A stretch of 42,220 bases of DNA from Candidatus Parcubacteria bacterium (GCA_023128895.1 JAGMDC010000007.1:1-42220); one strand, 5' to 3'. Positions 5,180-25,159 are shown, counted from the first letter of the stretch. Notes: generated by a model from the letters alone, not told the origin. A program made the numbers and translations.

Positions 5180-5767
5180 ATGAATCAATTTTCAAACAAC
5201 AAAGGGTTTACGCTGATAGAAGTTGTGGTTTCTATTTTTATGTTTTTTTCAATATTTGTAGTGATTTTAGGATTTTTCGGATATGCTGTTAAGGGACAGA
5301 AAAAAGCGCTTGCCTCGCAAGAGATTTCTGACCAAATAAGTTATGTTATGGAATATATGAGCAGAAGCATAAGAATGGCAAACAAGGATGTGGGAGGAAC
5401 TTGTATCGCGGCTGGAAAAAATTATGAAATCACAACCCCTATGGCAGGATATTCTTGCATAAGATTTTTGAATTATGACAATAAATGTCAAGAATTTTGT
5501 TTTGATTCAAACAACAATCAATTAAAAAGACGTAAATCTGGTGATGGCGGCTCTGGAGGACTTGTCGGCTCTGAAGTGGACATAACCTCATCCAAACTCA
5601 AAGTAAATTCCGCTCAATTCAACATTATTGGCAACGGAATTGGGGATAATATTCAGCCAAAGATAACTATTTCTCTTGATGTGGAAAAAAATGCTGAAAA
5701 GCCGGAATACAACGCCCAAATCAAAATCCAATCCACAATTTCGCAAAGAAACCTTGATACGAACTAA
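5180..5767 (+). CDS. Type IV pilus/type II secretion pseudopilin (GspJ/PulJ-like)
   Basis: N-terminal NNKGFTLIEVVVS prepilin peptidase site plus hydrophobic helix. Confidence 0.78.
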   Translation: MNQFSNNKGFTLIEVVVSIFMFFSIFVVILGFFGYAVKGQKKALASQEISDQISYVMEYMSRSIRMANKDVGGTCIAAGKNYEITTPMAGYSCIRFLNYDNKCQEFCFDSNNNQLKRRKSGDGGSGGLVGSEVDITSSKLKVNSAQFNIIGNGIGDNIQPKITISLDVEKNAEKPEYNAQIKIQSTISQRNLDTN

Positions 5768-5853
5768 CGGCTGCAGCCGTCACCCTGAACGATAGCGAAG
5801 GGTCTCGTCCCAACAGTGATACAAAGAGACTCTTCGCTCCGCTCAGAATGACA
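5767..5853. repeat. REP/MITE-like imperfect inverted repeat
   Basis: ACGGCTGCAGCCGT palindrome (5767-5780), then TCACCCTGAACGATAGCGAAGGGTCTCGT facing AGAGACTCTTCGCTCCGCTCAGAATGACA (arms ~29 nt). Confidence 0.65.
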
Positions 5854-5862
5854 ATAAAAACA

Positions 5863-6267
5863 ATGAAACAATTTTCAAACTCTCAAAAAGGCGTAGCATT
5901 GTATGTTACTTTAATCGTCACATCCATAGTTCTGGCGATTGCTTTGGGCATAAGCTTGATTTTAGTTGGACAATTAAAAATGACAAGGGAAATCGGAGAT
6001 TCGACAAAAGCGTTTTTTGCCGCAGACGCCGGCATGGAAAGGGTGCTTGATCAAAGTATATCTGAAATTGAAACAAACAACGGTTATTATTCCGCTTCTT
6101 TTGACGGAAACCCTGATTATGGTTACGAAGTTTGGGTATACAGCAGTCCTAGTTGCGCTATCTGCGGGACCATACCAGTTGACGCTGCTTGTACCGGACA
6201 ATATCTTTGCTACAGGTCAAAAGGATTTTATAAAAGCATTAATAGGGCAATAGAGATTGTGAGGTGA
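5863..6267 (+). CDS. PilX-like minor pilin/pilus assembly protein
   Basis: MKQFSNSQKGVALYVTLIVTSIVLAIALGISLI; FFAADAGMERVL typical of PilX/GspK-like proteins. The ORF-track start at 5848 lies in the upstream repeat. Confidence 0.65.
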   Translation: MKQFSNSQKGVALYVTLIVTSIVLAIALGISLILVGQLKMTREIGDSTKAFFAADAGMERVLDQSISEIETNNGYYSASFDGNPDYGYEVWVYSSPSCAICGTIPVDAACTGQYLCYRSKGFYKSINRAIEIVR

Positions 6268-6282
6268 AGTGCGCATAATATT

Positions 6283-6360
6283 GCGGCTATGCCGCATAAT
6301 TACTCGCTCGGAATAAATACAAAAACAAGCTTTTGTATTTATTCCTCGCTCATAATTATG
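6283..6360 (-). repeat. Modular palindromic element, copy A
   Basis: GCGGC-TAT-GCCGC hairpin + CATAATTACTCGCTCGG + 15-bp perfect stem GGAATAAATACAAAA/TTTTGTATTTATTCC + TCGCTC; same layout as copy B in inverse orientation. Confidence 0.75.
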
Positions 6361-8355
6361 AATAGAATACAGGCGAAAAAGAGAATTGAAAAACTAAAAG
6401 CGGTGATTTCTTATCACCGTTATTTATATCATGTGTTAGACAAGCAGGAAATCTCTGACGAGGCTTTGGATTCCCTGAAACACGAACTCTATAAACTGGA
6501 ACAGCAATATCCGGATTTGCTCACTCCTGATTCTCCGACTCAGCGCGTAGGCGGCGAGCCCTTGAAGGAATTCAAAAAAGTAGAGCATAAAACGCCTATG
6601 CTTTCTATGGAGGATATTTTCTCGCAAGAAGAATTAAAAGATTGGGAAAACTATCTGAAACGGCTTTTGCCCGGGACATCGTTTAATTATTTTTGCGAAC
6701 CGAAAATAGACGGTTTTGCCATTAGTTTAATTTACAAAAATGGTGTTTTAATTCAGGGATCCACGCGCGGGGACGGAAAAATCGGAGAAAATGTGACGCA
6801 AAATTTAAAAACTATTGAAAGCATCCCATTAAAATTGAAATTGAGTCAAGACCCGAGATTGACAAAAGAGGTTGACATCAGGGGCGAGGTCTATATGGAA
6901 AAAAAGGATTTTGAAAAATTCAACAAAAAAAGAAAACAACTGAATGAACAGCCCTTTGCCAATCCCAGAAATTTGGCTGCCGGTTCTATCAGGCAGCTTG
7001 ACTCAAAACTTATGGCTTCCCGCCCTTTGAAATTTTTGGCTTATGATATTGCGAGCGACCTCGGACAAACAACACACTCTCAAGGGCACCAAATACTGCT
7101 CTCTTTGGGATTCAAAACCGAACTCGGCAAAAAATGCGCGAATTTACAAGAAATACAAAAATACTGGCAAAAAGTATCACAAAAGAGAAAAAATCTCGCT
7201 TTCCAAATTGACGGCATAGTGATCAATGTTGAAAATAATTCGTTTTTCAAAAAATTAGGAACAGCGGGAAAAAGCCCAAGAGGCGCGAGGGCTTTCAAAT
7301 TTTTTCCGGAACAAGCGACAACTATTATTGAAGATGTAAAATTCCAAATTGGAAGAACAGGCGCCATAACTCCGGTTGCTTTGTTAAAACCAATAAAAAT
7401 AGGGGGAACAACTGTGTCAAAAGCAACATTGCATAACGAAGACGAAATCAAGCGATTAGGAGTAAAAATAGGAGACACGATAATAGTTGAAAGAGCAGGA
7501 GATGTAATCCCTGCAGTGGAAAAAGTCCTGCCAGAACTGCGCGACGGAAAAGAAAAAAGAATTCAAATGCCAACTATCTGCCCTGTATGTAAGACCCCTT
7601 TAATTAAACCAAAAGGAGAGGTTATATGGAGGTGCCCGAATAAAAATTGTTTTGCCGTAAAAAGAGAATTATTAGAGCATTTTGCTTCCAAAAAGGGCTT
7701 TAATATTGACGGATTGGGACCGAAAATTATAAACAAACTATTGGAGGAAAATTTAATATGGTCTCCTTGCGATTTCTTTCATCTTTCCAAGGGAGATTTA
7801 TCTCCTTTGGAAAGATTTGCGGAAAAGTCAGATGAAAATTTAATACAAGCAATCCAGAAAAGCAAGACAATTCCTTTATCCAGATTTATTTATGCCTTGG
7901 GCATCCGTTTTGTGGGTGAAGAAACAGCAATTGTGCTTGCGCAATATTTCGGCTCTCTAAAAAAAATCATGGAAGCAAACAAACAGGAATTATCAGCAGT
8001 GCCGGATGTCGGACCTCGGGTCTCCAACAGCATCTTTAATTGGTTTCGAGAAAAAGACAATCAAAAATTAATTACTGATTTGATAAGCGCGGGAATAAGA
8101 ATTCTTGCTCCGGCAAAAATATCGCGAAAATTATCCGGAAAAACATTTGTTTTGACAGGGACATTAAATTCAATGACACGGGAGCAGACAAAAAACAAAA
8201 TTCGGTTTTTGGGAGGCGATGTCCCGAATTCAATTTCTCAAAAAACTATGTTTCTGGTTGTTGGCAAAAACCCTGGGGAGACAAAAACAAAAAAAGCCAA
8301 AAAAGTTGGTATAAAAATCATACACGAAAAAGAATTTCTAAAAATGATCAAGTGA
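6358..8355 (+). CDS. ligA: NAD-dependent DNA ligase
   Basis: CEPKIDGFAISLIY active site (K of KIDG), SIRQLDSK, C4 zinc finger CPVCKTP...CPNKNC, HhH and C-terminal BRCT. Start moved to ATG 6358 (MNRIQAKKRIEKL) because the 6289 start reads through a repeat. Confidence 0.95.
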   Translation: MNRIQAKKRIEKLKAVISYHRYLYHVLDKQEISDEALDSLKHELYKLEQQYPDLLTPDSPTQRVGGEPLKEFKKVEHKTPMLSMEDIFSQEELKDWENYLKRLLPGTSFNYFCEPKIDGFAISLIYKNGVLIQGSTRGDGKIGENVTQNLKTIESIPLKLKLSQDPRLTKEVDIRGEVYMEKKDFEKFNKKRKQLNEQPFANPRNLAAGSIRQLDSKLMASRPLKFLAYDIASDLGQTTHSQGHQILLSLGFKTELGKKCANLQEIQKYWQKVSQKRKNLAFQIDGIVINVENNSFFKKLGTAGKSPRGARAFKFFPEQATTIIEDVKFQIGRTGAITPVALLKPIKIGGTTVSKATLHNEDEIKRLGVKIGDTIIVERAGDVIPAVEKVLPELRDGKEKRIQMPTICPVCKTPLIKPKGEVIWRCPNKNCFAVKRELLEHFASKKGFNIDGLGPKIINKLLEENLIWSPCDFFHLSKGDLSPLERFAEKSDENLIQAIQKSKTIPLSRFIYALGIRFVGEETAIVLAQYFGSLKKIMEANKQELSAVPDVGPRVSNSIFNWFREKDNQKLITDLISAGIRILAPAKISRKLSGKTFVLTGTLNSMTREQTKNKIRFLGGDVPNSISQKTMFLVVGKNPGETKTKKAKKVGIKIIHEKEFLKMIK

Positions 8356-10137: not shown

Positions 10138-10206
10138 GAGCGAGGGAGAAGTACAAAAATTCATTTTTGTATTTTAACCGAGCGAGTAATTATGCGGCTT
10201 TGCCGC
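10138..10206 (+). repeat. Modular palindromic element, copy B
   Basis: GAGCGAGG + TACAAAAAT-TC-ATTTTTGTA + CCGAGCGAGTAATTAT + GCGGC-TTT-GCCGC. Confidence 0.75.
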
Positions 10207-10218
10207 AATAATAGTTTA

Positions 10219-12120
10219 ATGTTTGAAACCCGAAAATTGAAAAAATTTTTGCTAAGTTTCGCATCTGTCAAAAAAACAACTTCATTGCTGATTTTGTTTT
10301 GCGTTATCGGCGGCATAATGGTTCCAATCTATCCTGCCAATGCCTGGCCTTCCTGGTGGGACGCGGTAGTCGTGGGCACTTTACCTGTTACTGCCCCGCT
10401 TCTTGGCGCAATAGCAGGCGCAAAATTTTTAAAAAGCAAATTGGACGAAGGCGGAATAAATATTTTTGAGGGAATGCTTTCTGTAGGCATTACTGGCTTA
10501 GTATCAGTCAGCTCTGTTTTTCTGTCACTTGGCCAAGGGGCTTTGGGCTGGGTGACCAGCCCTGGTTTTGTTAATGTGAGTTTTACAGGCGATGACAATA
10601 CAATCGTCGCAGAGGGATGGAAGATTGTCAGAAATCTTGTGAATATGTTTATTGTTCTAGGCTTTGTTATTGTTGCCCTTGCCACTATTATCGGCATACA
10701 AGAATACAACGCGCAAAAACTTTTGCCCGGTTTAATCGCAATAGCGCTTTTAATCAATTTCACGCCGGTAATCTGCGGTTTAATGATTGACGCTTCAAAC
10801 ATAGCGATGAATCATTTTTTATCAGGCGCGACATTGAATAGGGGTTTTATTGAAACTATAGATTACCAAACAGGCGCGATACTTGAAAAAGAGGGACTTG
10901 AATTGACAGAGAAACTCGGATTAGCAGCGGGCTTGGCTGGTTTTAATATTCTTGGAGGAATTATTTTCATGCTTTTCGCTCTTTTGTTCGCCGTAAGATA
11001 TGTCGCGCTCTGGATTTTAGTTATTTTGTCGCCTTTGGCGTTCTTTTGCTATATTTTTCCAAAAGCAAAAGGGGTATGGTCTGCCTGGTGGACGCAATTT
11101 TTTCAATGGTGCATTATTGGAATACCAGCGGCTTTCTTTATCTATTTATCAAACAATCTCACAGCTGAAATGATGAGAGGAAGTATGCTTGGCAAACCAA
11201 CTGGCGAAATCAGTGTAACCGGGTTCAGCGCTTTATTTATGTTTATGGTGCCTATGATGTTTATGGTTGTTGGATTGTTCGCTTCCTTAAAGACCGGCGC
11301 AATGGGCGCGAATATGATAACCGCATACGCGCAGACAACAGGAAAGCAAGCCACTACAAGAGTAAGCAAATGGGCTGGTGGGAAAGCCAAAAAACAAGTT
11401 GGTGAAATCGGCGAAAATCCTTGGGTTAGGAGAAGAATAGAAGGCGCGGGAAGAAGAGCTGAATGGCTTGATAAATACAAACACCCGACTGAAAGAGGGA
11501 GAGTTTTGGCAGACGCGACGCAAAGAGAAAAGAGAAACCAAGAAATAGAGGCAAGTAAAAAACGAATAATTCACTTATCCGCGGATGAAAGAGAAAAAGT
11601 GGCTGGAACAAATATTGAGAAAATAGGTAAATTCAGAGCAGACACTGAACAAGATATGCTTAGCGACCACGATAAGAGAAATATAAATGTTGTAAGAAAA
11701 TATGGAACGGGTAAAGATATAGGCGACGCGGAAAAGAAACGACCTGACTGGGCAGGGGATTTAGATACGGAAAAGGTTCAAAAAATTATGATGGCTGATA
11801 GCGTATCCGAGGAAGTGGCAAAAAAAAGAGTTGTCAGAAAAAAAATAGAAGGAATAACTCCGTTAAAACTGAGACAGGAAATACAACCAGAGGCATTGGA
11901 AAATGTTGATGTGTTTACTGCTATGAGTAAACAGCAATACGAAGAAATAAAAAATAAAGGCAAGAAAAAACACAGAGAAGCAATGAAAAAAAATATTACT
12001 AAAAATATACACGCGATAAGGCAGACAATTAATGAAATAGAAGATACCGGGCAATATGAGAGAGCGTCTGAATTAATGGATAGAGTAATAGAAATAGATT
12101 CCAGCCCGGATTTTGCTTAA
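10219..12120 (+). CDS. VirB6/TrbL-like multi-TM conjugation/secretion channel protein with long charged C-terminal tail
   Basis: Signal-like N-terminus, multiple TM helices, cytosolic-looking tail; neighbours PrgI- and VirB4-like genes. Start moved from 10192 because the first 9 codons are repeat copy B. Confidence 0.68.
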   Translation: MFETRKLKKFLLSFASVKKTTSLLILFCVIGGIMVPIYPANAWPSWWDAVVVGTLPVTAPLLGAIAGAKFLKSKLDEGGINIFEGMLSVGITGLVSVSSVFLSLGQGALGWVTSPGFVNVSFTGDDNTIVAEGWKIVRNLVNMFIVLGFVIVALATIIGIQEYNAQKLLPGLIAIALLINFTPVICGLMIDASNIAMNHFLSGATLNRGFIETIDYQTGAILEKEGLELTEKLGLAAGLAGFNILGGIIFMLFALLFAVRYVALWILVILSPLAFFCYIFPKAKGVWSAWWTQFFQWCIIGIPAAFFIYLSNNLTAEMMRGSMLGKPTGEISVTGFSALFMFMVPMMFMVVGLFASLKTGAMGANMITAYAQTTGKQATTRVSKWAGGKAKKQVGEIGENPWVRRRIEGAGRRAEWLDKYKHPTERGRVLADATQREKRNQEIEASKKRIIHLSADEREKVAGTNIEKIGKFRADTEQDMLSDHDKRNINVVRKYGTGKDIGDAEKKRPDWAGDLDTEKVQKIMMADSVSEEVAKKRVVRKKIEGITPLKLRQEIQPEALENVDVFTAMSKQQYEEIKNKGKKKHREAMKKNITKNIHAIRQTINEIEDTGQYERASELMDRVIEIDSSPDFA

Positions 12121-12582: not shown

Positions 12583-12608
12583 GGGGATTTACTCCCCTTT
12601 TTTTATTC
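12583..12608. terminator. Terminator between convergent genes
   Basis: GGGGA-TTTAC-TCCCC followed by a T-run on + and T-rich DNA on -. Confidence 0.65.
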
Positions 12609-13835
12609 ATATTTTTTGGCTACCTGTTCAAATTTTTCTTTCTTATGCTTATATGTATCTCCTGTCGCCTCTGTTTTTTCTGTCGCCTCTGTTTTTTCTG
12701 TTTTCTCCGTTTTTCCCGCGCTGCCGGCGATGATCTGTTGAGCCGCCGCACCTGCTACGAGCGCTTCGGCTATATTGCCAGCGATAGTGCTGCTCCCGCT
12801 ACTCGTCTGAAACCGTATCAATTTCACGACTTCTTTTCCTGTATCTACTTGCAATCCTTTAGACACCTGTAACTCGTAAATGCTATGCGCTATTTGGTCG
12901 GCGTTCATTGGATCAAATCCTCCCTCAACAAGTTTCTTTCTGATAGCCCCAACTACCTCTGTCTCCCTTTGCAGTCTTCGCGCTTCATATTTCGCTCCTT
13001 GCGCGAATAATTTCTCTTTGTCTGGCTGGGAAATCGCTTTTTTAAGGTCCTTGTCTTCCAAATCCACTACTCTTAATGCTACATCTGTTTTATCTGTATT
13101 CAAACCGCCTAATTTGAAGGGGCTATTTTTACCTGTAATTCTCTCATTTACTATATCTAGTATCTTTGCTCTGCCGTCTTTTTCTGTTGCTATGCCCCAA
13201 GTCATTGACCCTATTGCTTCCCTAAAAGCGCTGTCTATTTCTCCGACTACATAATCTCTCAGCCCTTCTTCTGTGGTAGGAGTCCCTCTTTCTATGGCAT
13301 TTTTCACGCTTTGAAAATCTCTATTAAACTCTGTGTATATCACGGCGTCAACGACTATCATTTGTTTCCCAAACTCTTCTTCGTTTTCTCCTTTTCCTTC
13401 TTTGCCTTTCTTTGAAATGGCTAATCGCGGGTCAAAATTTAATTTCAACCGCGTTTTAGGAATTTTCACTAATCCGCAATGAGGTAATCGCGGCACCAAA
13501 CAAGGGCCTGAATCACGATAACCCACTATCTTTTCAAAGAAAATAACTGCTGCAATGTGCTTTTTGTCCACCATCCGTATCCATGTGGCAAGCCATATCG
13601 CTGTCAAAAACGCCAACGCTACTATCACTGTTACCATTGAAATTTTTAGCAACGCGCTTAAAATCCCTGACAGCGCAAAAAATGCCGCAGTTGCTCCTAT
13701 AATTATTCCTATTGTCTTTGATTCATTCCATTCGCCTCCTCCATCGCTCGACACCTGCGCTTGCTGACTGCTCTGACCTGTTGGTGTTGCCGTGTTCTCC
13801 GATGTATCGTTCCCTAAAATATCTCCTAAAGTCAT
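12603..13835 (-). CDS. SPFH/Band-7-like membrane protein
   Basis: Two TM helices, then VIFFEKIVGYRDSGPCLVPRLPHCGLVKIPK and a helical C-terminal half (YEARRLQRETEVVGAIRKKLVEGG); TEKTEKTEATEKTEA tail. Confidence 0.6.
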   Translation of the reverse strand: MTLGDILGNDTSENTATPTGQSSQQAQVSSDGGGEWNESKTIGIIIGATAAFFALSGILSALLKISMVTVIVALAFLTAIWLATWIRMVDKKHIAAVIFFEKIVGYRDSGPCLVPRLPHCGLVKIPKTRLKLNFDPRLAISKKGKEGKGENEEEFGKQMIVVDAVIYTEFNRDFQSVKNAIERGTPTTEEGLRDYVVGEIDSAFREAIGSMTWGIATEKDGRAKILDIVNERITGKNSPFKLGGLNTDKTDVALRVVDLEDKDLKKAISQPDKEKLFAQGAKYEARRLQRETEVVGAIRKKLVEGGFDPMNADQIAHSIYELQVSKGLQVDTGKEVVKLIRFQTSSGSSTIAGNIAEALVAGAAAQQIIAGSAGKTEKTEKTEATEKTEATGDTYKHKKEKFEQVAKKYE

Positions 13836-14076: not shown

Positions 14077-14478
14077 ATGGAGTTTACTGTTCCAAAATTT
14101 ATTGAGAAAGAAGCGAAAATCATAGGGCCTTTGACTTTTAAACAATTTTTATGTTTGCTCATACCAGGAGCCACTGTGTTTCTCGCTTATTATACTTTGC
14201 CTCTTGCCATTGCTATTCTTCTCGCTATTGTTTTAATGGGCGGCGGTATTGCTCTTGCTTTTTTGAAAATCGGGGGCAGGAGTTTTCCTGTTGTTATGAA
14301 AAATTTTGTAACCTTTTATCCTTCTGTAAAATTATATGTCTGGAAAAGAAAAGCCATACCGCCGAAAATAATAAAAAAAGAAGAAGTAAAACAAAAGAAA
14401 AAAGAAATTGCTATTTCTCCAAAGGTTACCGAGAGCAAACTGAAAAATTTATCCAGTAGAATTGAAACCTTTAGATAA
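14077..14478 (+). CDS. PrgI family protein (T4SS-associated small membrane protein)
   Basis: FTVPKFIEKEAKIIGPLTFKQFLCLLIPGATVFLAYY. Confidence 0.75.
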   Translation: MEFTVPKFIEKEAKIIGPLTFKQFLCLLIPGATVFLAYYTLPLAIAILLAIVLMGGGIALAFLKIGGRSFPVVMKNFVTFYPSVKLYVWKRKAIPPKIIKKEEVKQKKKEIAISPKVTESKLKNLSSRIETFR

Positions 14479-14488
14479 ATATAAAATT

Positions 14489-15133
14489 ATGGCGCAGCCA
14501 TCCACACAAAGTTTTTTAGAAATCGGACAAATCAAAGAAGGCGTGCTTATTCTGAAAAGCAACGCGTTAAGGAGCATATTAATGGTCTCGTCTTTGAATT
14601 ACGCGCTGAAATCAAACGAAGAGCAAACCGCGATTATTTATCAATTCCAAAATTTCCTGAATTCTCTGGATTTTACCTGCCAGATTATTGTTCAGTCCAG
14701 ACGGTTAAATATTACTGGCTATCTTGAAAAATTGCGCAAAGCAGAGGAAAAACAAACCAATGATTTGTTAAAAATTCAAATATCCGGATATATAGAATTT
14801 ATAGAAAGTTTAGTTGGCACTGGAAGCATTATGAATAAATCGTTTTTCGTAATAGTGCCTTTTAGTTTGTTTGACGAGCGAAAACAGCAGCCAAAAGATG
14901 GAATAAAACTGCAAGCCCCGAAATTCCCAATCCTAACTGAAGAAACTTTTAAGCGATGCAAATCCCAATTAATGCAAAGAACTAATTTTATAATGATGGG
15001 ATTGGCAAGATGCGGATTAAAAGCCACGCCGCTAAATACTTCTGAAATAATTGAATTATTCTGGTCATTGCACCACCCAAAAAGAGCCGAAGTCGGCTAT
15101 TATCCTGAAATGCCGCCAGAATTAACCCTATAA
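14489..15133 (+). CDS. VirB4 N-terminal/TraC-like companion protein
   Basis: FLEIGQIKEGVLILKSNALRSILMVSSLNYALKSNEEQ; directly upstream of VirB4 ATPase. ATG 14489 preferred over TTG 14462. Confidence 0.55.
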   Translation: MAQPSTQSFLEIGQIKEGVLILKSNALRSILMVSSLNYALKSNEEQTAIIYQFQNFLNSLDFTCQIIVQSRRLNITGYLEKLRKAEEKQTNDLLKIQISGYIEFIESLVGTGSIMNKSFFVIVPFSLFDERKQQPKDGIKLQAPKFPILTEETFKRCKSQLMQRTNFIMMGLARCGLKATPLNTSEIIELFWSLHHPKRAEVGYYPEMPPELTL

Positions 15134-15310: not shown

Positions 15311-17098
15311 ATGAAATTTCCTTTTTTTAAAAAACCAAAACAAAATATCGTAGAAAAATTGTTTGAAAAAGAAACACTAAGAGCCGCGGACATTATTGCC
15401 CCTGCTTCTATTAAAGTAGAACAAAGCCGATTACAGATAGGAGATGAACGGTTTGCTAAAACATTTTTTATTTTTTCCTACCCGCGTTATCTAAACTCCG
15501 GCTGGCTGTCGCCGATTATAAACTTAGACGTTCCAATGGATGTTTCTTTTTTTATCCACCCTATCGCGAGCGGGATAGTGTTAAAACAATTAAGAAAACG
15601 GCTCACAGAAATTCAGGCAGAACTTTTAACAAGAGAGGAGAAAGGACTTATTCGGGACCCGACTTTGGAAACAGCGTTAAATGATATTGAAAATTTAAGA
15701 GACCAGCTTCAAACAGCCCAGGAAAGAATGTTTAAGTTTGGGCTTTATATCACTGTTTACGCAAACCAGGAAAAAGAACTCGCGGAAACAGAGACAGAAC
15801 TGCGTTCTATTTTAGAATCACGGTTGATTTATATCAAACCCGCGTTATACCAGCAAAAACAAGGATTTACTTCCACCTCCCCTTATGGGCTGGACCAATT
15901 AGGAGTGCACAACACTGTAAACACTGAACCATTGTCCAGTATTTTTCCTTTTATCTCTTTTGATTTGTCTTCCAACGAAGGCATCTTATACGGAATTAAC
16001 AAACACAACAATTCTTTGGTTTTGTTTGATAGATTTACCATGGAAAATTCAAACTTCACAATTTTCGGAAAATCCGGTTCCGGAAAGTCATTTTTGGTGA
16101 AAATTGAGGCGCTTCGGTCGTTAATGCTCGGCACTGATGTAATTATTCTTGACCCTGAAAACGAATATAAAGCGCTGGCAAACAGCGTCGGCGGCGCGTT
16201 TTTCAGCATTTCTTTGTCTTCTCCGCATCATATCAATCCTTTTGACCTTCCAGCGCCCCGGGAAGACGAAAGGCCTGAAGATGTACTACGTTCCAATATT
16301 ATTAATTTAGTAGGATTGTTCAGAATTATGTTCGGTGGATTAACGCCCGAAGAAGACGCGATTATGGACAGAGCGATAACAGAAACATACGCGGCAAAAG
16401 ATATTTCTGCGGACACCGATCCAAAATTATGGAGCAAAAACTTTCCTTTAATGCAGGATTTGGAAGCAGTGCTGGAAACAATGGACGGAGCGGAATCATT
16501 AGTAAGGAGGACAAGAAAATTCACCAAAGGAACTTTTGCAAAATTCTTTAACCAGCCGTCCAACATTTCCGTGAATAAAAGATTCGTAGTGTTTGGAATC
16601 AGGGATATGGAAGATGAATTAAGGCCTATAGCAATGTTTATGGTAATGAGATATATTTGGAACTCCGTCCGAGCGGAAATTAAAAAAAGAATATTAGTGG
16701 TGGATGAGGCATGGTGGATAATGCAGTCGGAAGACGGAGCTTCATTTTTGTTCGGCATCTGCAAGAGAGCCAGAAAATACTGGCTTGGCGTAACAACTAT
16801 TACGCAGGATGTGGCTGACTTTATGAAATCTCCTTATGGAAAACCAATTCTCACTAATTCGTCTCTGCATCTTTTAATGAAACAATCGCCTGCTTCTATT
16901 GATATAGTCCAAAAGACCTTTAATTTGACTGATGAGGAAAAATATATGCTTTTAGAGGCGGCTATTGGAGAAGGATTGTTTTTCGCTGGAATGAAACATG
17001 TGGCAATGAGGGTTGTCGCGTCTTACGCCGAAGAGCAAATCATCACCACAAACCCTGAAGAACTGCAAAAAATCAAATTGGCAAAAGAAACACAATAA
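15311..17098 (+). CDS. VirB4-like T4SS ATPase
   Basis: Walker A FGKSGSGKSFLVK, Walker B RILVVDEAWWIM, TTITQDVADFM. Confidence 0.88.
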   Translation: MKFPFFKKPKQNIVEKLFEKETLRAADIIAPASIKVEQSRLQIGDERFAKTFFIFSYPRYLNSGWLSPIINLDVPMDVSFFIHPIASGIVLKQLRKRLTEIQAELLTREEKGLIRDPTLETALNDIENLRDQLQTAQERMFKFGLYITVYANQEKELAETETELRSILESRLIYIKPALYQQKQGFTSTSPYGLDQLGVHNTVNTEPLSSIFPFISFDLSSNEGILYGINKHNNSLVLFDRFTMENSNFTIFGKSGSGKSFLVKIEALRSLMLGTDVIILDPENEYKALANSVGGAFFSISLSSPHHINPFDLPAPREDERPEDVLRSNIINLVGLFRIMFGGLTPEEDAIMDRAITETYAAKDISADTDPKLWSKNFPLMQDLEAVLETMDGAESLVRRTRKFTKGTFAKFFNQPSNISVNKRFVVFGIRDMEDELRPIAMFMVMRYIWNSVRAEIKKRILVVDEAWWIMQSEDGASFLFGICKRARKYWLGVTTITQDVADFMKSPYGKPILTNSSLHLLMKQSPASIDIVQKTFNLTDEEKYMLLEAAIGEGLFFAGMKHVAMRVVASYAEEQIITTNPEELQKIKLAKETQ

Positions 17099-17555: not shown

Positions 17556-18941
17556 ATGATTAACAATCAAAAAATTCTTTTAATACTTATCCTTATAGGA
17601 GTTTTTGGATTGTTCTGCGCTAGCAATTTTGTATTAGCCCAGGAAATCACCGATTATCCAACAATATCGGGCGCTGACACGCCTGGACCAGACACCACTC
17701 TGCCTCAGTATATCAAATATTTATTTAATTTCGGCATAGCGCTGGGAGGAATTTTGGCTTTTGTTGTTTTTGCTTTTGGAGGCGTAATGTGGGTTATGTC
17801 TGCCGGCAACCCGGTAATAATCGGTATTGCAAAAGCAAAAATGCTCAAAGGAATTATGGGTCTGGCTCTCCTGCTCGCCTCATACCTGATTATTGTTGCC
17901 ATAAATCCTGATTTAACTGTTTTAACTTTGGAAGATTTAGATTGGAAAGAATATACCGGTCGTAAATATGTTCCGGCAGACATAGACGCGAAAACTTATA
18001 AAGAAATGCCTATTGGCCTTTTAATTGAAGATATTTTGGCGAAAAATATCAGTTGTTTTGACAAAGACGGCAATTTAATTAACTGCAGAACTCAGGAAAT
18101 TATCCAGCACGCCAAAGAGGATATCTTTGCTCCTGATACACATTATAATTACTGCTATAAATATGATAATCGGGGCAATAAAAAAGAGTTAATGGATTAT
18201 CGCGACCGAATGGACTGCATAAAAAGACTTTTAGTCGCGATTAAAATAAAAAGCAATGAATTAAAACAAATATCTAAAAAATTAGAGATAGCGCTTAAAC
18301 AATGTAAATGCACAAACTGTGACCATGGCTATTGCATAGATGGATTTTGCAATGGTCGATGTAAATGTATTCCTTGTAAAAATCACTGCCATTGCTGCGG
18401 CAGTCCAAGAGAAGAACGGATATCCTGTTCAGGCAATCCTCCTTTCACGCTTTATACAGACCCCTGCCCCAACAGAAAGGAAATAGATGATATAAGAAAT
18501 GAAATTCACCAAATAATAAATGGAACTAAGAAAAAAATTGACGGCGCAAATATAATAGATGATCCATTGCATGACACAAAATTTTTATATCTTAAAGAAG
18601 CTCAAGAAAGGTTAAATGGCTTAAAACAAGAATTAAATAAAGACTTAGACGAGTTAAAAGAAGTAGAAGAACTAACAAAATTTCCTTACGGCAAGCGATT
18701 AAGTTTGGCAGAATATTTTGACAAAAAATTAAAAAGAAACATAAACAAACAAATGTTCAAACACTTCTATATCCCTGAATACGACAGTATTTCAAGATAC
18801 TGTAAGATATTTAACTGCAAAGATTTTGATAGTGATGTTTGTCACGGATACAGACTTAATGACAAAGGCATATTATGCAATTTATTCAATTTTGACGGCG
18901 ATCCAGCCACTTTCTATTATCCTAAAAAAGAATATGAATAG
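17556..18941 (+). CDS. VirB2/TrbC-like two-TM module fused to a coiled-coil, Cys/His-rich exported domain
   Basis: Signal peptide; TLPQYIKYLFNFGIALGGILAFVVFAFGGVMWVMSAGNP...AKAKMLKGIMGLALLLASYLIIVAINP; then CKCTNC...CNGRCKCIPCKNHCHCC. Confidence 0.65.
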   Translation: MINNQKILLILILIGVFGLFCASNFVLAQEITDYPTISGADTPGPDTTLPQYIKYLFNFGIALGGILAFVVFAFGGVMWVMSAGNPVIIGIAKAKMLKGIMGLALLLASYLIIVAINPDLTVLTLEDLDWKEYTGRKYVPADIDAKTYKEMPIGLLIEDILAKNISCFDKDGNLINCRTQEIIQHAKEDIFAPDTHYNYCYKYDNRGNKKELMDYRDRMDCIKRLLVAIKIKSNELKQISKKLEIALKQCKCTNCDHGYCIDGFCNGRCKCIPCKNHCHCCGSPREERISCSGNPPFTLYTDPCPNRKEIDDIRNEIHQIINGTKKKIDGANIIDDPLHDTKFLYLKEAQERLNGLKQELNKDLDELKEVEELTKFPYGKRLSLAEYFDKKLKRNINKQMFKHFYIPEYDSISRYCKIFNCKDFDSDVCHGYRLNDKGILCNLFNFDGDPATFYYPKKEYE

Positions 18942-19863
18942 CCATAATCATAAAATTATTTTCATTATATTGGCTCTGCCTTTAATCGGCGCCTTGACAT
19001 ATTCATTCTATAATTCCTATAGTAATGAAAATGCAAAGGTTTTTGCTTTTCTTGGAAAAGAAACAAAGTGCGTTGTTGACCCGGTTATAGAAAAAAAATT
19101 CTTGGGAACGGAAAGAGGCAAAATCCCGATTGGCGAAGCAGTTGACGAAGCAGAGGACTTTGCCCAAAAAATAATAGATGAAATGAACATTATAAATAGC
19201 AATCTTACAAATGAGATAAATGCTGGGAATGAATTAGTTTGGCTTCCTGAACAATGCGAATGTAAAAGGTGCACAAGCAGTATGGAAACAGATATTCTAA
19301 GGTGCCAATGGGAATGGACTACAGGTTCTGGATTAAACGAAAAAACGCATTCTTGCTCTTGCATTACTCAACATAATTGTAAATGTGTTTGCTCGGGCGA
19401 TGTCTGCCCGTTTGGCGAAATTGAAGGAAAAATAGATATAATCCAAGAAGCAGATTCAAATATTCAAAAATCTTTGGAAAGAATAATAGATTTAATTGAT
19501 GCGAAGAATTTATTGCCTGGTGACCCTGATAGATGGAATGTTTTGAATAAATTATTAAATTCGCGGGTAAAAATGGAGGAATGCATTATTGGCTATGACT
19601 CTGCGCTTGACGCGCCAAGAGCAAAAATGAATCTCTTGAGCTGCAGGATTGCCTTAGACAGAATATACTTGCATAAACTCAACATTGCCGGATATTTTGA
19701 AGATAATATATCTCCTTTCCCCCATTGTTATCCTTTTATTGCTGACAATACAATAAAATCTATTTGTATAGAAAACAAAGACAGCAAAGAATGCCGAGAA
19801 GCAATTAAGGATTATATGGATAACTATTTCTGCGCCGGCTATGTCGGCCTTGGCGATAAATAA
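18934..19863 (+). CDS. Membrane-anchored Cys-rich coiled-coil protein
   Basis: N-terminal TM MNSHNHKIIFIILALPLIGALTYSF; QCECKRC...SCSCITQHNCKCVCSGDVCPFG. ATG 18934 overlaps the previous stop by 8 nt; the track start at 18826 is inside the previous gene. Confidence 0.6.
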   Translation: MNSHNHKIIFIILALPLIGALTYSFYNSYSNENAKVFAFLGKETKCVVDPVIEKKFLGTERGKIPIGEAVDEAEDFAQKIIDEMNIINSNLTNEINAGNELVWLPEQCECKRCTSSMETDILRCQWEWTTGSGLNEKTHSCSCITQHNCKCVCSGDVCPFGEIEGKIDIIQEADSNIQKSLERIIDLIDAKNLLPGDPDRWNVLNKLLNSRVKMEECIIGYDSALDAPRAKMNLLSCRIALDRIYLHKLNIAGYFEDNISPFPHCYPFIADNTIKSICIENKDSKECREAIKDYMDNYFCAGYVGLGDK

Positions 19864-19871
19864 ATGAATAT

Positions 19872-21248
19872 ATGAAAACCAATCAAAAAATCATTTTAAT
19901 ATTTATTCTTGTTGGATTTATGGCGCTGGTTTGCGCAGGAGATTTTGCTCTCGCGCAAAGGGATTTGGAAGTTATTGATTATCCCGATGTGCCTGGCGCT
20001 GTTACGCCCGGCAAAGACACTGAATTGCCCCAATATGTTAAGTATTTGTTTAATTTCGCCATTGGCTTAGGCGGAATTTTGGCGTTTGTTATTCTTATTT
20101 TTGGAGGAATTAAATGGATGACATCTGCCGGGGACCCGACAAAAATTAACGAAGCAAAAACAAAAATGCTCGGCGGCATTATTGGTTTAATACTGTTGTT
20201 AGGCGCTTGGTTTATTATTGACGCTATAAACCCAAAATTGCTCTCTCTGAAAAAAATGGATAAATTGGAACCAAACACAGGAATTTATGTTACCGGCGAT
20301 TTTACAGACAACGAAGGCAATGTATATCAAGAAAAAAGATGGTATGTAGGAGATATTCAAAGTTTCACAAATTTTGTTCCAACATCAATGGAATTCATCA
20401 GCGAACCATTGGAATTGCTTTCTGTTTTTGAACATACTCAAGAAGAATTTAAAGGCAGTATAGAAGAAATAGAAAACACGGGCAAAGGCAGCGGCGCCAA
20501 CATTTCAGGAAAATCAATTTCTTTCCAATGGGCAAAATCAGGATTTTACTTGTATGAAGAACCTGATTTTGATGTTTTACAGAAAAAGCCGGAATATCTT
20601 TCCGGGTCCGCGGCTGTTCTTAAGGAATGGGACAATATGACAGAATCCATAAAAATCAAGCATCCTTCAAAACAAATTATTAAAATGGGGGTCGCTTTCA
20701 CGGAACCGAATTTTAACGGAAAGTGTGAATTGGTTCTTGAAGGACTATATGAATTTTTTGATGATAAAATAAGCAATGATCTCATCACAAGGCTGCCAGA
20801 TTTTCCAACTTCTCATCCTGGGGCAGGCAAAGACCTGTCTTCTATGCATATATTTACTCTTGATACTGACAAAGAGCAAAAGGGCGAAGTAATCTTTTAC
20901 GACGAAATCAACTGCCAGGGAAACAGTTTTACAACAACCCTTGAAAGAGAAAGAGGCGCGACAGGAGTAGTAACGGGAAACATTATAGGTTCGGGTAGTT
21001 TTGTAAGTCATAACTTCGGGGCAAATACCGCTGACGAACGCGTTATGTCTTTCAAAATCAACGGGCCTTATGTTGTTGTTATTATGACAAAAGGGCTGGG
21101 CGTAGACAAATCAAACCGAATATGCCAGCGCTTCCTTAAACCAAACGACACAAATTGCTACGGCACTCTTAAAGGAAGCAATGTTTTTGACCCTGACCCA
21201 AACAGCGACTTGAAACCGCGCGGATTCTTTATAGTTGGTTCGAACTAA
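19872..21248 (+). CDS. VirB2/TrbC-like two-TM module fused to betagamma-crystallin-like repeats
   Basis: Shared DYPDVPGAVTPG..LPQYVKYLFNF module; motifs VFEHTQEEFKGS, YLYEEPDFDV, AFTEPNFNGKCELVLEG, VIFYDEINCQGNSFTTT with downstream S-x-x-F/I strands. Confidence 0.62.
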   Translation: MKTNQKIILIFILVGFMALVCAGDFALAQRDLEVIDYPDVPGAVTPGKDTELPQYVKYLFNFAIGLGGILAFVILIFGGIKWMTSAGDPTKINEAKTKMLGGIIGLILLLGAWFIIDAINPKLLSLKKMDKLEPNTGIYVTGDFTDNEGNVYQEKRWYVGDIQSFTNFVPTSMEFISEPLELLSVFEHTQEEFKGSIEEIENTGKGSGANISGKSISFQWAKSGFYLYEEPDFDVLQKKPEYLSGSAAVLKEWDNMTESIKIKHPSKQIIKMGVAFTEPNFNGKCELVLEGLYEFFDDKISNDLITRLPDFPTSHPGAGKDLSSMHIFTLDTDKEQKGEVIFYDEINCQGNSFTTTLERERGATGVVTGNIIGSGSFVSHNFGANTADERVMSFKINGPYVVVIMTKGLGVDKSNRICQRFLKPNDTNCYGTLKGSNVFDPDPNSDLKPRGFFIVGSN

Positions 21249-21257
21249 ACAACCAAT

Positions 21258-22931
21258 ATGGCTCAAAAAAAACAAAAAATCATTTTAATACTTATCCTTG
21301 TTGGATTTATGGCGCTGGTTTGCGCGGGGGATTTTGCTCTCGCGCAAAGGGATTTGGAAGTTATTGATTATCCTGATGTGCCTGGCGCCGCAGCGCCCGG
21401 CAGAGACACCACCCTGCCCCAATACATTAAATATCTGTTTAATTTCGGCATAGCCCTTGGAGGAATTTTGGTTTTTTTGGTCTTTGTATCCGCTGGAATT
21501 CGCTGGTCAACCTCTGCAGGCGACCCAACAAAAATCGCTCAGGCAAAATCAAGAATGCTGGCTGGAATAATCGGCTTGGCGCTGTTACTCTTCTGCTATC
21601 TTATAATCACTGCGATAAATCCCAATTTAAAAACATTTCAAGATGTGAAAGAAATGCCTCAAAGCGTTGGCATTTATATCACCGGCGATGTAACAGATAA
21701 CGAAGGAAACATATATCAAGAAGAAAGATGTTATCAGGGCAGTATTCCCGGCTTCACAAATTTTACTCCGACATCAATAAAATTTATCAGCAATGAAGAA
21801 GAGCTGCTTGCTATATTTGTTTACAGCCAGGAAGAATATAAAGGGACATCTACAAGGATTGAGAATAAAGGAAAAGGAACGGGGGACAACATTTCAGGAG
21901 AATCAATTGATTTCCTTTGGAACAAGCCCGGCACTTATTTATATGAAAAAACTAATTTTGAAATTCATAACAGGCAGCCAAAATTTTGTACAGGACTTTA
22001 CCAAGACCTAAGCAAAGATAACTGGGATAATAAAACGCAATCCTTGAAATTCAACAATATACCCGGAGCAGGCTTAAATTTCGGCGCTGTCTTATTCTCT
22101 GAAAATGATTTTGAGGGCAGCAAATGCGGATACGCGTTTGAAAAAGATGTTGCAGACCTGTCTCTTGGCAGCAATAATTATCTCTGGCCCATAGAAAAAG
22201 ACAACCTCTCTTCAATGATTGTGTTGAATACTTCAAAAACAGGCGGAACTGTAACTTTTTACGATTCAATCAACTGCCAGGGCAGAGAAAAAACATACAC
22301 GACTTCAGATGTTCTGGCAATAAACGACCTTACCAAGGACAATTGTTCGTTTGGGGATTGTCTCTTTGGTAGATTAAACGCGGATGATATAGAAAAAGAA
22401 TTGCATAGAAACATTATGTCTATGCGAATAGAAGGAGATATGTACGCGCTTCTTAAGTCGCAAGAGGGAGAAGAATATGTTCCTCCGCCTTGGGATGAAG
22501 AAAAAATTGAGTTTCCTCCCGGTATCCCAGTCAGCGAATGCACTACACGAGTGTTAGCAGCGCTTGCGAATGGAACTGAATTTGACATTGTCCGCCCAAC
22601 AAAAAAGGATTTAAGGTCAAGATTTCCCGAAACCAGAGGGGGTTGGCACGGCGAAACTCCGACTAATTTTAGTTGCGATGAAGTTTGCGCAAATCGAGGC
22701 CAGGATTGCCTAGGCATAGGATTATATAATGTAGAAAAGACTTTTTGCAGATATATAATACATAATATAGGATCGAATTGCCAGCTGTCAGCAAATTTAG
22801 AATGGGGAGAATGCGGAATGGGCTTTAGGTATGGATCCGGCTTCTGCGAAGAATCCTCTCCTGTCTGGGCATCATGGGGATATGCCGATACTGGCTGTTA
22901 TTGTGTGAATAAAGGAATCCTTGAAAAATAA
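21258..22931 (+). CDS. VirB2/TrbC-like two-TM module fused to betagamma-crystallin-like repeats and a Cys-rich C-terminal domain
   Basis: Near-identical N-terminus to 19872 gene; IFVYSQEEYKGT, YLYEKTNFEI, LFSENDFEGSKCGYAF, VTFYDSINCQGREKTY; Cys-rich tail from SCDEVCANRGQDCLGIG. Confidence 0.62.
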   Translation: MAQKKQKIILILILVGFMALVCAGDFALAQRDLEVIDYPDVPGAAAPGRDTTLPQYIKYLFNFGIALGGILVFLVFVSAGIRWSTSAGDPTKIAQAKSRMLAGIIGLALLLFCYLIITAINPNLKTFQDVKEMPQSVGIYITGDVTDNEGNIYQEERCYQGSIPGFTNFTPTSIKFISNEEELLAIFVYSQEEYKGTSTRIENKGKGTGDNISGESIDFLWNKPGTYLYEKTNFEIHNRQPKFCTGLYQDLSKDNWDNKTQSLKFNNIPGAGLNFGAVLFSENDFEGSKCGYAFEKDVADLSLGSNNYLWPIEKDNLSSMIVLNTSKTGGTVTFYDSINCQGREKTYTTSDVLAINDLTKDNCSFGDCLFGRLNADDIEKELHRNIMSMRIEGDMYALLKSQEGEEYVPPPWDEEKIEFPPGIPVSECTTRVLAALANGTEFDIVRPTKKDLRSRFPETRGGWHGETPTNFSCDEVCANRGQDCLGIGLYNVEKTFCRYIIHNIGSNCQLSANLEWGECGMGFRYGSGFCEESSPVWASWGYADTGCYCVNKGILEK

Positions 22932-22950
22932 ATATTACTTTTGTAAAATT

Positions 22951-24672
22951 ATGAATATATTTGAAAAACTTCATTATAAACTCCAATATATTGATAAAAG
23001 GATTTTAATTATTTTGGCTATTGCAGCTGTTGTTTTACTAATAGCAATAATTTGTATTGTTTTTTTGGGAAACAAAGAAAAGCCGCTAACGCCACAGGAA
23101 AAGCAAGAGCAAGAACAAGAGCAAGAACAAGGAGAAACTGAAGAAGATGTGTATCATTACACGCCTTTGACTAAAACAGATTGTGAAAATACAACGAATA
23201 AACAAGAAAAACAAAAGTGTTTTGATAGATTAGAACACATAAATATTCTTATGCGAAACAATTATATAAAATGTTTGGATATTACTACATTGGAAGTTAG
23301 AGACGATTGTTTGTTAAATTTTGCTTATTCTATTCTTCTAAACGATAATTTATGTTTTGCTATTTCAGACCCCCAAAAAAGACATTTGTGCGTAGACAGA
23401 ATAATTATAACAAACAGAGACAAAAACGCTTGTAAAAAGCATTTTGGGGACGAACCATTTGAGTGTCAGGAATGTATGGACAGGATTTCAGCGTTTAATA
23501 TAGGGGAAGACAAAAATCCAGAAAAAATATATGAATGTCAAAAAATTAAAAGTTTGGAATATCCGAGATTATGCCTTTGGATGTCTTTTAAGAATACATT
23601 TAAGGATAATTGCGAATTAGTGCCTTTGGAGTTCAGGCCTTATTGTATTGCTTACTATACTATTCATAGCGCAAGCACAAAAGAGCATTGTTCAGCAATA
23701 GCATTAGAGCAATACAAAGATTTTTGTTTGGCTAAGGTTGAAGCAGGGGGATGGAGAGGAGTTGCATCTCTTGATTCAGACAATGACGGTATTACAGACT
23801 GGAACGATTTATTTATGGGATTAGATCCTAAAAATCCTGATACAGACGGAGACGGATTATCAGACGGGGATGAGATGTCTGAATATCATACAAATCCTAC
23901 AGAAAAAGACACTGATAATGACGGCTTGACTGATTATCAAGAAATAAAGATTTATCATACCAATCCTCAAAAGCCGGACACTGATGGAGATGGAATACTG
24001 GACGGAAAAGAGATCAGAAGCGGAAGCAATGCTTTAAGCGGAGATAGAGATAAAGACGGACTTTTAGACGAGATTGAAAAGAAAATTGGTACAAATATCA
24101 ATAAAAAGGACACTGATGGAGATGGAATGACTGACGGCGATGAATGGAAACGAGGGTTAAATCCTTTAAAACCAGGCGCTGTTTTATCTGATACTGATAA
24201 AGACGGGTTAAAGGATTTGGATGAGATTTTTTACGGAACAGACAGATTAAATCCTGATACAGACGGAGATGGAATTTTAGACGGGGAAGAGATAAAAAGA
24301 TTGACTAATCCATTAGGAAAGGGATATATGGATTTTGACAATGACGGAATAACTGATAAACAAGAAATAGAGCGCGGAACAAATCCTGTTTTGCCGGACG
24401 CCGGAGACAGCCATAGCAATATCGCGCCAACCAATGCTTCCGCCGCTATTCCAGATTCTGAGTATTCTTCTGATTGGCTTGCCAGTATTTTAAATCCTTT
24501 TCTCTCTTTAACCGCAAGCCAGGATCCAGACACAGACACAGGATGCCAGCTATTCAAAAAACCTAAAAGAAAAGACGGTTGTATCAACACCTTAAAAGGG
24601 AGCGCTGTATACAGCCCTGATTTTTCTGGAAAAAAAGTTGAGTCCTTAATGCTCATTCCAGCGAAATACTAA
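22951..24672 (+). CDS. Membrane-anchored protein with thrombospondin type 3-like calcium-binding repeats
   Basis: N-terminal TM; about nine D-x-D-x-D-G-[LI]-x-D repeats (e.g. DTDGDGLSDGDE). Confidence 0.82.
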   Translation: MNIFEKLHYKLQYIDKRILIILAIAAVVLLIAIICIVFLGNKEKPLTPQEKQEQEQEQEQGETEEDVYHYTPLTKTDCENTTNKQEKQKCFDRLEHINILMRNNYIKCLDITTLEVRDDCLLNFAYSILLNDNLCFAISDPQKRHLCVDRIIITNRDKNACKKHFGDEPFECQECMDRISAFNIGEDKNPEKIYECQKIKSLEYPRLCLWMSFKNTFKDNCELVPLEFRPYCIAYYTIHSASTKEHCSAIALEQYKDFCLAKVEAGGWRGVASLDSDNDGITDWNDLFMGLDPKNPDTDGDGLSDGDEMSEYHTNPTEKDTDNDGLTDYQEIKIYHTNPQKPDTDGDGILDGKEIRSGSNALSGDRDKDGLLDEIEKKIGTNINKKDTDGDGMTDGDEWKRGLNPLKPGAVLSDTDKDGLKDLDEIFYGTDRLNPDTDGDGILDGEEIKRLTNPLGKGYMDFDNDGITDKQEIERGTNPVLPDAGDSHSNIAPTNASAAIPDSEYSSDWLASILNPFLSLTASQDPDTDTGCQLFKKPKRKDGCINTLKGSAVYSPDFSGKKVESLMLIPAKY

Positions 24673-24698
24673 AAAACCGCGCTTAAGCGCGGTTTTTT
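24673..24698. terminator. Bidirectional terminator shared by TSP3-repeat gene and jag
   Basis: Perfect palindrome CCGCGCTTAAGCGCGG flanked by A4-6 and T6; jag TAA lies at its centre. Confidence 0.88.
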
Positions 24699-25159
24699 AT
24701 AACAATTCTTCTATTTTCCCGCTCGCCTATGCTTTCTGTCTCAACATCTCCCCTTGCTTGCAATTCCAAATGCACAATTCTTCTTTCATAAGCGGTCATT
24801 GGAGGAAGAATTTTTTCTTTTTTAGACAAAGACACCTCGTCCGCTATTGACCGCGCCAAATCCTTCAAATACTCGTTCTTTTTCTTTTTATAATCCTGAA
24901 TATCCAAATCAATATAAAATATATCTTCTTTTTTCTCACAGCGAATATTTTTTCTCAAAATAGCGGTTAATAAATGCTGAATTTCCGTTAAAGTGCGGCC
25001 GCCTTCTCCTATTAAAATCTGAGGCTCGTCTATTTTCAAATCAATGGGAATGGTTGAGTCAATCACATCATTAAACAAAATTTCCGGGTCAAAATCGGTT
25101 TTTTTAAAAAACTCTTTTGTTATTTTTTTAATTTTTTCTAAATTCTCTTTTGAAATCAT
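24683..25159 (-). CDS. jag: Jag/SpoIIIJ-associated KH-R3H RNA-binding protein
   Basis: LIGEGGRTLTEIQHLL KH motif; MTAYERRIVHLELQARGDVETESIGERENRRIVI R3H motif. Confidence 0.88.
   Translation of the reverse strand: MISKENLEKIKKITKEFFKKTDFDPEILFNDVIDSTIPIDLKIDEPQILIGEGGRTLTEIQHLLTAILRKNIRCEKKEDIFYIDLDIQDYKKKKNEYLKDLARSIADEVSLSKKEKILPPMTAYERRIVHLELQARGDVETESIGERENRRIVIKNRA

What the first reader, a model, noticed from the sequence alone, without database searches (positions are those of the whole stretch)
17556..22931. Three VirB2/TrbC-like paralogues carry different exported domains, two with betagamma-crystallin-like repeats
Seen in sequence: 17556, 19872 and 21258 share a signal peptide, a DYPxxxGAxxPGxDTxLPQYxKYLFNF block and two TM helices ending in xAINPxL. 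Their long C-terminal domains then differ. In the 19872 and 21258 products I read four motifs each that look like Greek-key starts (YLYEEPDFDV, AFTEPNFNGKCELVLEG, VIFYDEINCQGNSF; LFSENDFEGSKCGYAF, VTFYDSINCQGREKTY). Knowledge: VirB2/TrbC pilins are normally short, so a pilin-like membrane module with a large tandem crystallin-like ectodomain would be unusual. Inference: one T4SS-like apparatus with interchangeable surface domains, perhaps for host or partner-cell contact.
Basis: partly seen in the sequence, partly recalled or inferred. Interest (0 to 1): 0.82.

Follow-up and report, generated by a model that had tools for sequence, protein, structure and literature searches.

The report
T4SS pilins carrying large surface domains
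Next to its type IV secretion genes, a tiny Patescibacterium encodes pilin-like membrane proteins that carry large outer domains, two of them built like eye-lens crystallins; relatives keep the same set of proteins, which makes them good candidates for the surface parts with which these bacteria touch or open a partner cell.

Summary
Genes 17556, 19872 and 21258 share a signal peptide and a two-helix VirB2-like module (Pfam T4SS_pilin; 61-73% identical to each other), then diverge. The ectodomains of 19872 and 21258 are betagamma-crystallin: a 37-sequence profile finds only crystallins in the PDB (best Protein S, E=1.5e-7), and an AlphaFold2 model (pLDDT 82) matches only crystallins. There are about six Greek-key motifs, not four. 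They sit in one operon with PrgI and the genome's only VirB4.

Related genomes change the interpretation. The domains are not freely interchangeable in the core: relatives repeat a fixed layout, virB4 - A (helical, Cys-rich, like 17556) - C - one to three B (crystallin). B occurs in 72 of 147 genomes of the order. Elsewhere the same module carries peptidoglycan hydrolases (M23, VanY, M15), Ig-like or beta-helix domains. One true swap is caught in place: about 2.06 kb is inserted inside the last crystallin motif of 21258, bringing a Cys-rich tail plus a TSP3 partner gene that elsewhere sit together on other pilin genes.

Best reading: 'extended pilins' that anchor host-contact and wall-opening domains at the Patescibacterial T4SS. 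Published surveys found here discuss VirB2-like pilins but not these domains. Pilus incorporation is unproven.

The parts
10192..12120 (+). VirB6-like polytopic protein of the T4SS locus
   Evidence: polytopic membrane protein, homologues in 58 of 119 loci compared, beside prgI/virB4 in many; VirB6 assignment by position and topology, no significant Pfam hit
14077..14478 (+). PrgI (VirB3-like)
   Evidence: PF12666 35.4 bits vs cut-off 27
14462..15133 (+). VirB4 N-terminal part (TrsD-like), separate gene
   Evidence: NCBIfam VirB4_plasma 3.7e-9, TrsD 2.4e-5; same split in relatives
15311..17098 (+). VirB4 ATPase
   Evidence: NF045971 368.9 bits vs cut-off 325; only VirB4 of the genome
17114..17518 (+). 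small membrane protein between virB4 and A
   Evidence: homologues in 32 loci
17556..18941 (+). A: extended pilin; module to about 17921, ectodomain 17925-18938 helical/Cys-rich
   Evidence: AF2 pLDDT only 64, no PDB fold match
18934..19863 (+). C: signal-anchored Cys-rich helical protein without pilin module; fused to the C end of A in other genomes
   Evidence: phmmer A and C hits on one ORF in L083, L065, L074, L064, L092
19872..21248 (+). B1: extended pilin with betagamma-crystallin ectodomain (module 19872-20247, ectodomain 20250-21245)
   Evidence: PF18895 1.2e-11; PDB profile; AF2/Foldseek
21258..22931 (+). B2: extended pilin; crystallin ectodomain 21639 to about 22469, then acquired Cys-rich tail to 22928
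22470..24528 (+). inferred ~2.06 kb insertion inside the last crystallin motif of ancestral B2: Cys-rich tail of B2 plus TSP3 gene
   Evidence: B2 and the end of the TSP3 ORF both match the same relative (L060 5276-6592), the two parts 2 residues apart there; tail and TSP3 are paired elsewhere
22951..24672 (+). TSP3-repeat membrane protein, ending in the displaced C-terminal crystallin motif of B2 (24529-24669)
   Evidence: PF18884 9.1e-41; C-terminal 44 aa 57% identical to a B protein, E=6.5e-12
24670..24699 (.). perfect 15-bp inverted repeat, probable bidirectional terminator ending the operon before jag-yidC
   Evidence: I8

Best explanation
The three proteins are 'extended pilins' of the Patescibacterial T4SS. 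Sec inserts them. The cleaved N-terminus and the C-terminus lie outside, and the two helices and the SAGDPxKI loop are in the membrane like VirB2. The large C-terminal domain is therefore on the outer face. The pilin module holds that domain at the VirB4/VirB6/PrgI machine, either as a minor or tip subunit of a pilus whose bulk is made of the short pilins encoded elsewhere, or as a static collar around the channel. A+C and B act as a fixed set for envelope passage and partner-cell contact, and B's crystallin array is the candidate binding or stiff spacer element. New ectodomains are acquired by recombination inside the operon. Shown: sequence, fold of B (predicted), synteny, insertion. Inferred: topology, incorporation into the T4SS, adhesion.
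For: Module matches T4SS_pilin over its cut-off for two genes and the mycoplasma ICE pilin-like family Mbov_0395 just under its cut-off (39.5 vs 40); 17556 joins by 61-64% module identity. One tightly spaced operon with prgI/virB4. Only VirB4 in the genome, no PF03432 relaxase. Layout repeated in relatives. 38 of 39 genomes examined have at least one module protein with a long extension. In other lineages the same module carries M23, VanY, M15 wall hydrolases or Ig, InlB-like or beta-helix domains, as expected if the module is an address label for the secretion site. Five short pilins lie on another contig. The Tn-seq essentiality of the T4SS and its pilin array in a cultivated relative is published (PMC10633639).
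Against: No direct evidence of pilus assembly or of contact between these proteins and VirB4/VirB6. No PDB pilin was found with the module profile. The longer ectodomains of relatives (up to over 1,000 aa) would be awkward in a polymer. 17556 alone does not reach the Pfam pilin cut-off. The canonical crystallin calcium motif is absent from both window proteins.
Confidence: 0.55

Rival explanations
1. The pilin module has become a plain membrane anchor. The proteins are ordinary surface proteins (adhesins, wall-binding or wall-cutting) that merely sit in the T4SS operon and are not part of the machine.
For: Very long and varied extensions on either side of the module; C has a Cys-rich helical domain on a single ordinary anchor; no PDB pilin match.
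Against: Module conservation is higher than that of the ectodomain (B1/B2 73% vs 42%), more than a mere anchor needs; tight synteny with virB4 in many genomes.
Confidence: 0.25
2. They form the envelope-spanning part of the channel (a functional substitute for VirB8/VirB1 and the outer core) in a monoderm cell wall rather than a contact organelle.
For: Wall hydrolases on the same module in relatives (L097, L113, L115, L122); fixed A-C-B set; VirB8 and VirB1 are often missing in Patescibacteria (PMC12102498).
Against: Crystallin and tail domains are fast diverging and partly swapped, which fits contact better than a conserved channel.
Confidence: 0.17
3. The shared N-terminal module is an unrelated membrane family and the pilin similarity is chance.
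For: 17556 scores only 7.4 bits with PF18895, and TrbC PF04956 is not significant.
Against: 44.9 and 32.8 bits for the two paralogues against a cut-off of 26.6; same loop motif as the short pilins; T4SS operon.
Confidence: 0.03

Closest known systems
VirB2-like pilins and pilin arrays of Patescibacteria (PF18895 T4SS_pilin; PMC12102498, PMC10633639, PMC12857230)
   Same: same module, two TM helices, signal peptide, near virB4/prgI/virB6, tandem divergent copies
   Different: those reports treat VirB2 as a small protein and describe arrays of 2-11 pilins; here the module carries 330-430 aa (up to about 1,000 in relatives) of extra domain in conserved A and B classes, which I did not find described
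betagamma-crystallin superfamily (Protein S of Myxococcus, lens gamma-crystallins)
   Same: paired Greek-key motifs; PDB profile and Foldseek matches are all of this fold
   Different: about six motifs in a row on a pilin-like anchor; canonical calcium motif missing in the window proteins, present in a few relatives
Mycoplasma ICE pilin-like protein Mbov_0395 (NF045849)
   Same: module similarity 39.5 bits (cut-off 40); its VirB4 partner family also matches
   Different: the NCBIfam model is only 80 positions long, so no ectodomain is part of it
PrgB-type adhesins of Gram-positive conjugation systems
   Same: proposed role: contact with partner cell
   Different: no sequence relation tested; PrgB reported absent from Patescibacteria (PMC12102498)

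Membership tests
T4SS_pilin (PF18895) | profile score above curated cut-off | tested here: met
   19872 44.9 bits, 21258 32.8 bits vs 26.6; 17556 7.4 bits, linked only through 61-64% module identity
T4SS_pilin (PF18895) | signal peptide and two TM helices with short charged loop | tested here: met
   hydropathy segments, two long helices in AF2 models, alignment with short pilins; signal cleavage read by eye
VirB2/TrbC (PF04956) | profile score above cut-off | tested here: not met
   12.7 bits vs 27.9 for 19872
VirB2 pilin | small mature protein made mostly of the two helices | tested here: not met
   458-557 aa
VirB2 pilin | polymerises into a pilus | not testable with these tools
   needs experiment
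T4SS locus | VirB4 and PrgI/VirB3 in the same operon | tested here: met
Conjugative T4SS | relaxase | tested here: not met
   no PF03432 in the genome; other relaxase classes not tested, genome 96.6% complete
betagamma-crystallin | Greek-key fold | tested here: met
   profile vs PDB: all 38 hits crystallins, best 1.5e-7; AF2 pLDDT 82, all 47 Foldseek hits at E<=0.001 crystallins, target TM up to 0.70
betagamma-crystallin | single-sequence Pfam score above cut-off | tested here: not met
   13.9 bits vs 25 for 19872; 9 of 37 relatives reach E<=1, best 9.9e-6
calcium-binding betagamma-crystallin | (N/D)(N/D)xx(S/T)S | tested here: not met
   none in the window proteins; 9 in 37 relatives vs 2.1 expected
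TSP3 repeat protein (ORF 22951-24672) | PF18884 repeats | tested here: met
   9.1e-41, 8 repeats

The most novel reading that the evidence does not exclude
Patescibacteria have turned the T4SS pilin into a general display platform: a family of extended pilins whose outer domains (crystallin arrays, helical Cys-rich stalks, wall hydrolases, beta-helices) are mounted on the secretion machine as a composite tip or collar, and are renewed by insertion of foreign ectodomain-plus-partner cassettes, thereby setting which partner cells the epibiont can use.
Probability: 0.35. Interest if true: 0.85.

Novelty: new variant of a known kind. Interest (0 to 1): 0.68.

Why it matters
How Patescibacteria, a very large part of bacterial diversity, attach to and exploit partner cells is an open question, and their T4SS is essential in the one cultivated member tested (PMC10633639). 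These genes name concrete surface parts of that machine, with a predicted fold, a conserved gene order and a natural domain-swap, which can be tested. They also show the pilin module joined to peptidoglycan hydrolases in relatives, which could explain why separate VirB1 homologues are often missing (inference).

Tried and rejected
Single-sequence search of genome contigs with 21258 found nothing; an alignment was needed. Single-sequence PDB searches found no crystallin; the profile did. Fold of the A ectodomain: AF2 pLDDT 64 and no significant Foldseek hit, so no fold is claimed. The A profile gives no crystallin in the PDB, which serves as a negative control. The module profile has no solved pilin relative by sequence. 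Idea that A and C are duplicates: hhalign finds only a 50-column Cys-rich hairpin (probability 89%), which composition could mimic; left open. Idea that the crystallins bind calcium canonically: motif absent here. Idea of free shuffling of ectodomains in the core: rejected, A and B sets do not overlap. Promoter scan is close to background (46 found vs 33 expected) and not used. Literature searches for crystallin with CPR T4SS, and for C-terminal domains of CPR pilins, found nothing relevant; only open-licence papers were searched.

Full report
What is there. The window is contig 9 of a 741-kb, 96.6%-complete genome. The nearest named relatives are Candidatus Nealsonbacteria and other Parcubacteria. 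The operon runs prgI (14077), virB4 in two genes (14462, 15311), a small membrane gene (17114), A (17556), C (18934), B1 (19872), B2 (21258) and a TSP3 gene (22951), with gaps or overlaps of a few to about 40 bases from virB4 on, and ends at a perfect 15-bp inverted repeat (24670-24699) before jag and yidC. It holds the only VirB4 of the genome.

Shared module. The first ~125 residues of A, B1 and B2 are 61-73% identical: signal peptide, extracellular linker DYPxxxGA..LPQYxKYLFNF, helix, SAGDPxKI loop, helix, AINPxL. PF18895 T4SS_pilin is matched over its cut-off by B1 and B2. The loop and second helix align with five short pilins encoded on contig 8, which end at or shortly after the second helix. 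A two-helix hairpin with a cleaved N-terminus puts the C-terminal domain outside; this topology is inferred from VirB2 knowledge.

Crystallin ectodomains. From 37 homologous B ectodomains a profile was searched against the PDB: all 38 chains at E<=10 are betagamma-crystallins, Protein S first at 1.5e-7. The AF2 model of B1, from an alignment with 31 relatives, has pLDDT 81.8; all 47 Foldseek matches at E<=0.001 are crystallins, target TM-score up to 0.70. The A profile, as control, finds none. From strands and alignment I count six motifs (about residues 138-175, 182-220, 224-263, 269-331, 339-397, 400-456 of B1). The canonical calcium motif is absent in both window proteins though above chance in relatives.

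A fixed set, not free shuffling. In 39 genomes of the order with neighbourhoods in hand, 38 have at least one module protein with a long extension, 30 have B, 22 have A, 20 both. Ectodomain profiles of A and B never hit the same protein. A precedes B in 56 of 58 pairs; the 2 exceptions are one genome fetched twice (some loci were fetched from two collections, so pair counts are inflated). C is a separate gene here and in the near relatives but fused to A in others, so A and C likely work together. B occurs in 72 of 147 genomes of the order but 7 of 380 across the phylum. Outside this group the same module bears other domains: Peptidase M23 (L097 1.4e-24, L113 2.1e-12), VanY below the Pfam cut-off (L115, L122), M15 on the N side (L128), Big_7 (L141), InlB-like repeat (L128), and, in a Nealsonbacterium, a NosD beta-helix before A (L081). 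In a phylum-wide sample most of the best-scoring PF18895 matches are short, with a minority of long ORFs.

A domain swap caught in place. B2 follows its relatives up to ...LLKSQEG (residue 404) and then changes to a Cys-rich tail. The missing end of the crystallin domain is found at the C-terminus of the next ORF: 44 residues, 57% identical, E=6.5e-12, to the same relative protein (L060 5276) that B2 matches, where the two parts lie two residues apart. So about 2.06 kb (22470-24528) was inserted in an ancestral B2. The tail is rare: besides B2, a search of 144 genomes of the order found it only in two genomes of one genus, two copies each, always on a pilin-module protein and next to a TSP3 gene. 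All eight strong members of this TSP3 family lie beside a pilin-module gene. The cassette is therefore the ectodomain and partner of another extended pilin. An assembly join cannot be fully excluded without reads, but the exact junctions within coding frames and the matching partner pair speak against it.

How it may work. I favour extended pilins that place outer domains at the T4SS (0.55): A+C and B as a contact or envelope-spanning set, hydrolase versions as wall openers in other lineages. That the proteins are part of the machine, or of a pilus, is inferred. Rivals are a plain membrane anchor (0.25) and a channel-wall part (0.17).

What is known. Published work reports the Patescibacterial T4SS, its VirB2-like pilins in arrays of 2-11, and essentiality in Saccharibacteria (PMC12102498, PMC12857230, PMC10633639). 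VirB2 is treated there as small, and no C-terminal ectodomain was mentioned in the passages I read; PF18895 is named in only one paper of the library. I therefore rate this a new variant of a known kind.

Noticed in passing
window 14462-15133 and 15311-17098: VirB4 is split into an N-terminal (TrsD-like) and an ATPase gene; the same split is present in about 60 related loci.
   Followed up: partly
L038 3930-7871 (contig 8 of the same genome): Array of five short T4SS pilins, interrupted by a large membrane protein gene (5413-6951, glycosyltransferase-like by eye), near type IV pilus genes; candidate major pilins for the same T4SS.
   Followed up: partly
L102, L100, L128, L107, L099, L111 (first module gene): Proteins of 620-1481 aa with the pilin module at the C-terminus and a large N-terminal domain (M15 peptidase in L128), i.e. 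the reverse arrangement.
   Followed up: partly
L081 717-3815 (G001): A-type extended pilin with a NosD/beta-helix domain placed before the pilin module.
   Followed up: partly
L139, L143: T4SS_pilin-module genes on contigs labelled Methanoperedenaceae and Methanophagales archaea, one in a 392-aa ORF; true archaeal genes or binning errors.
   Followed up: no
window 12603-13835 (-): 410-aa membrane protein on the opposite strand between the VirB6-like gene and prgI; SPFH/band-7-like by eye, no significant Pfam hit, seen in 3 loci including this one.
   Followed up: no
G000 contig 4, 94300-95256 (-): T4SS-DNA_transf (VirD4-like) match, 34 bits, in an 822-aa frame far from the T4SS operon.
   Followed up: no
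window 23170-23730: N-terminal part of the TSP3 protein has many regularly spaced Cys residues; weaker relatives of this region occur in 30 of 141 genomes of the order.
   Followed up: partly
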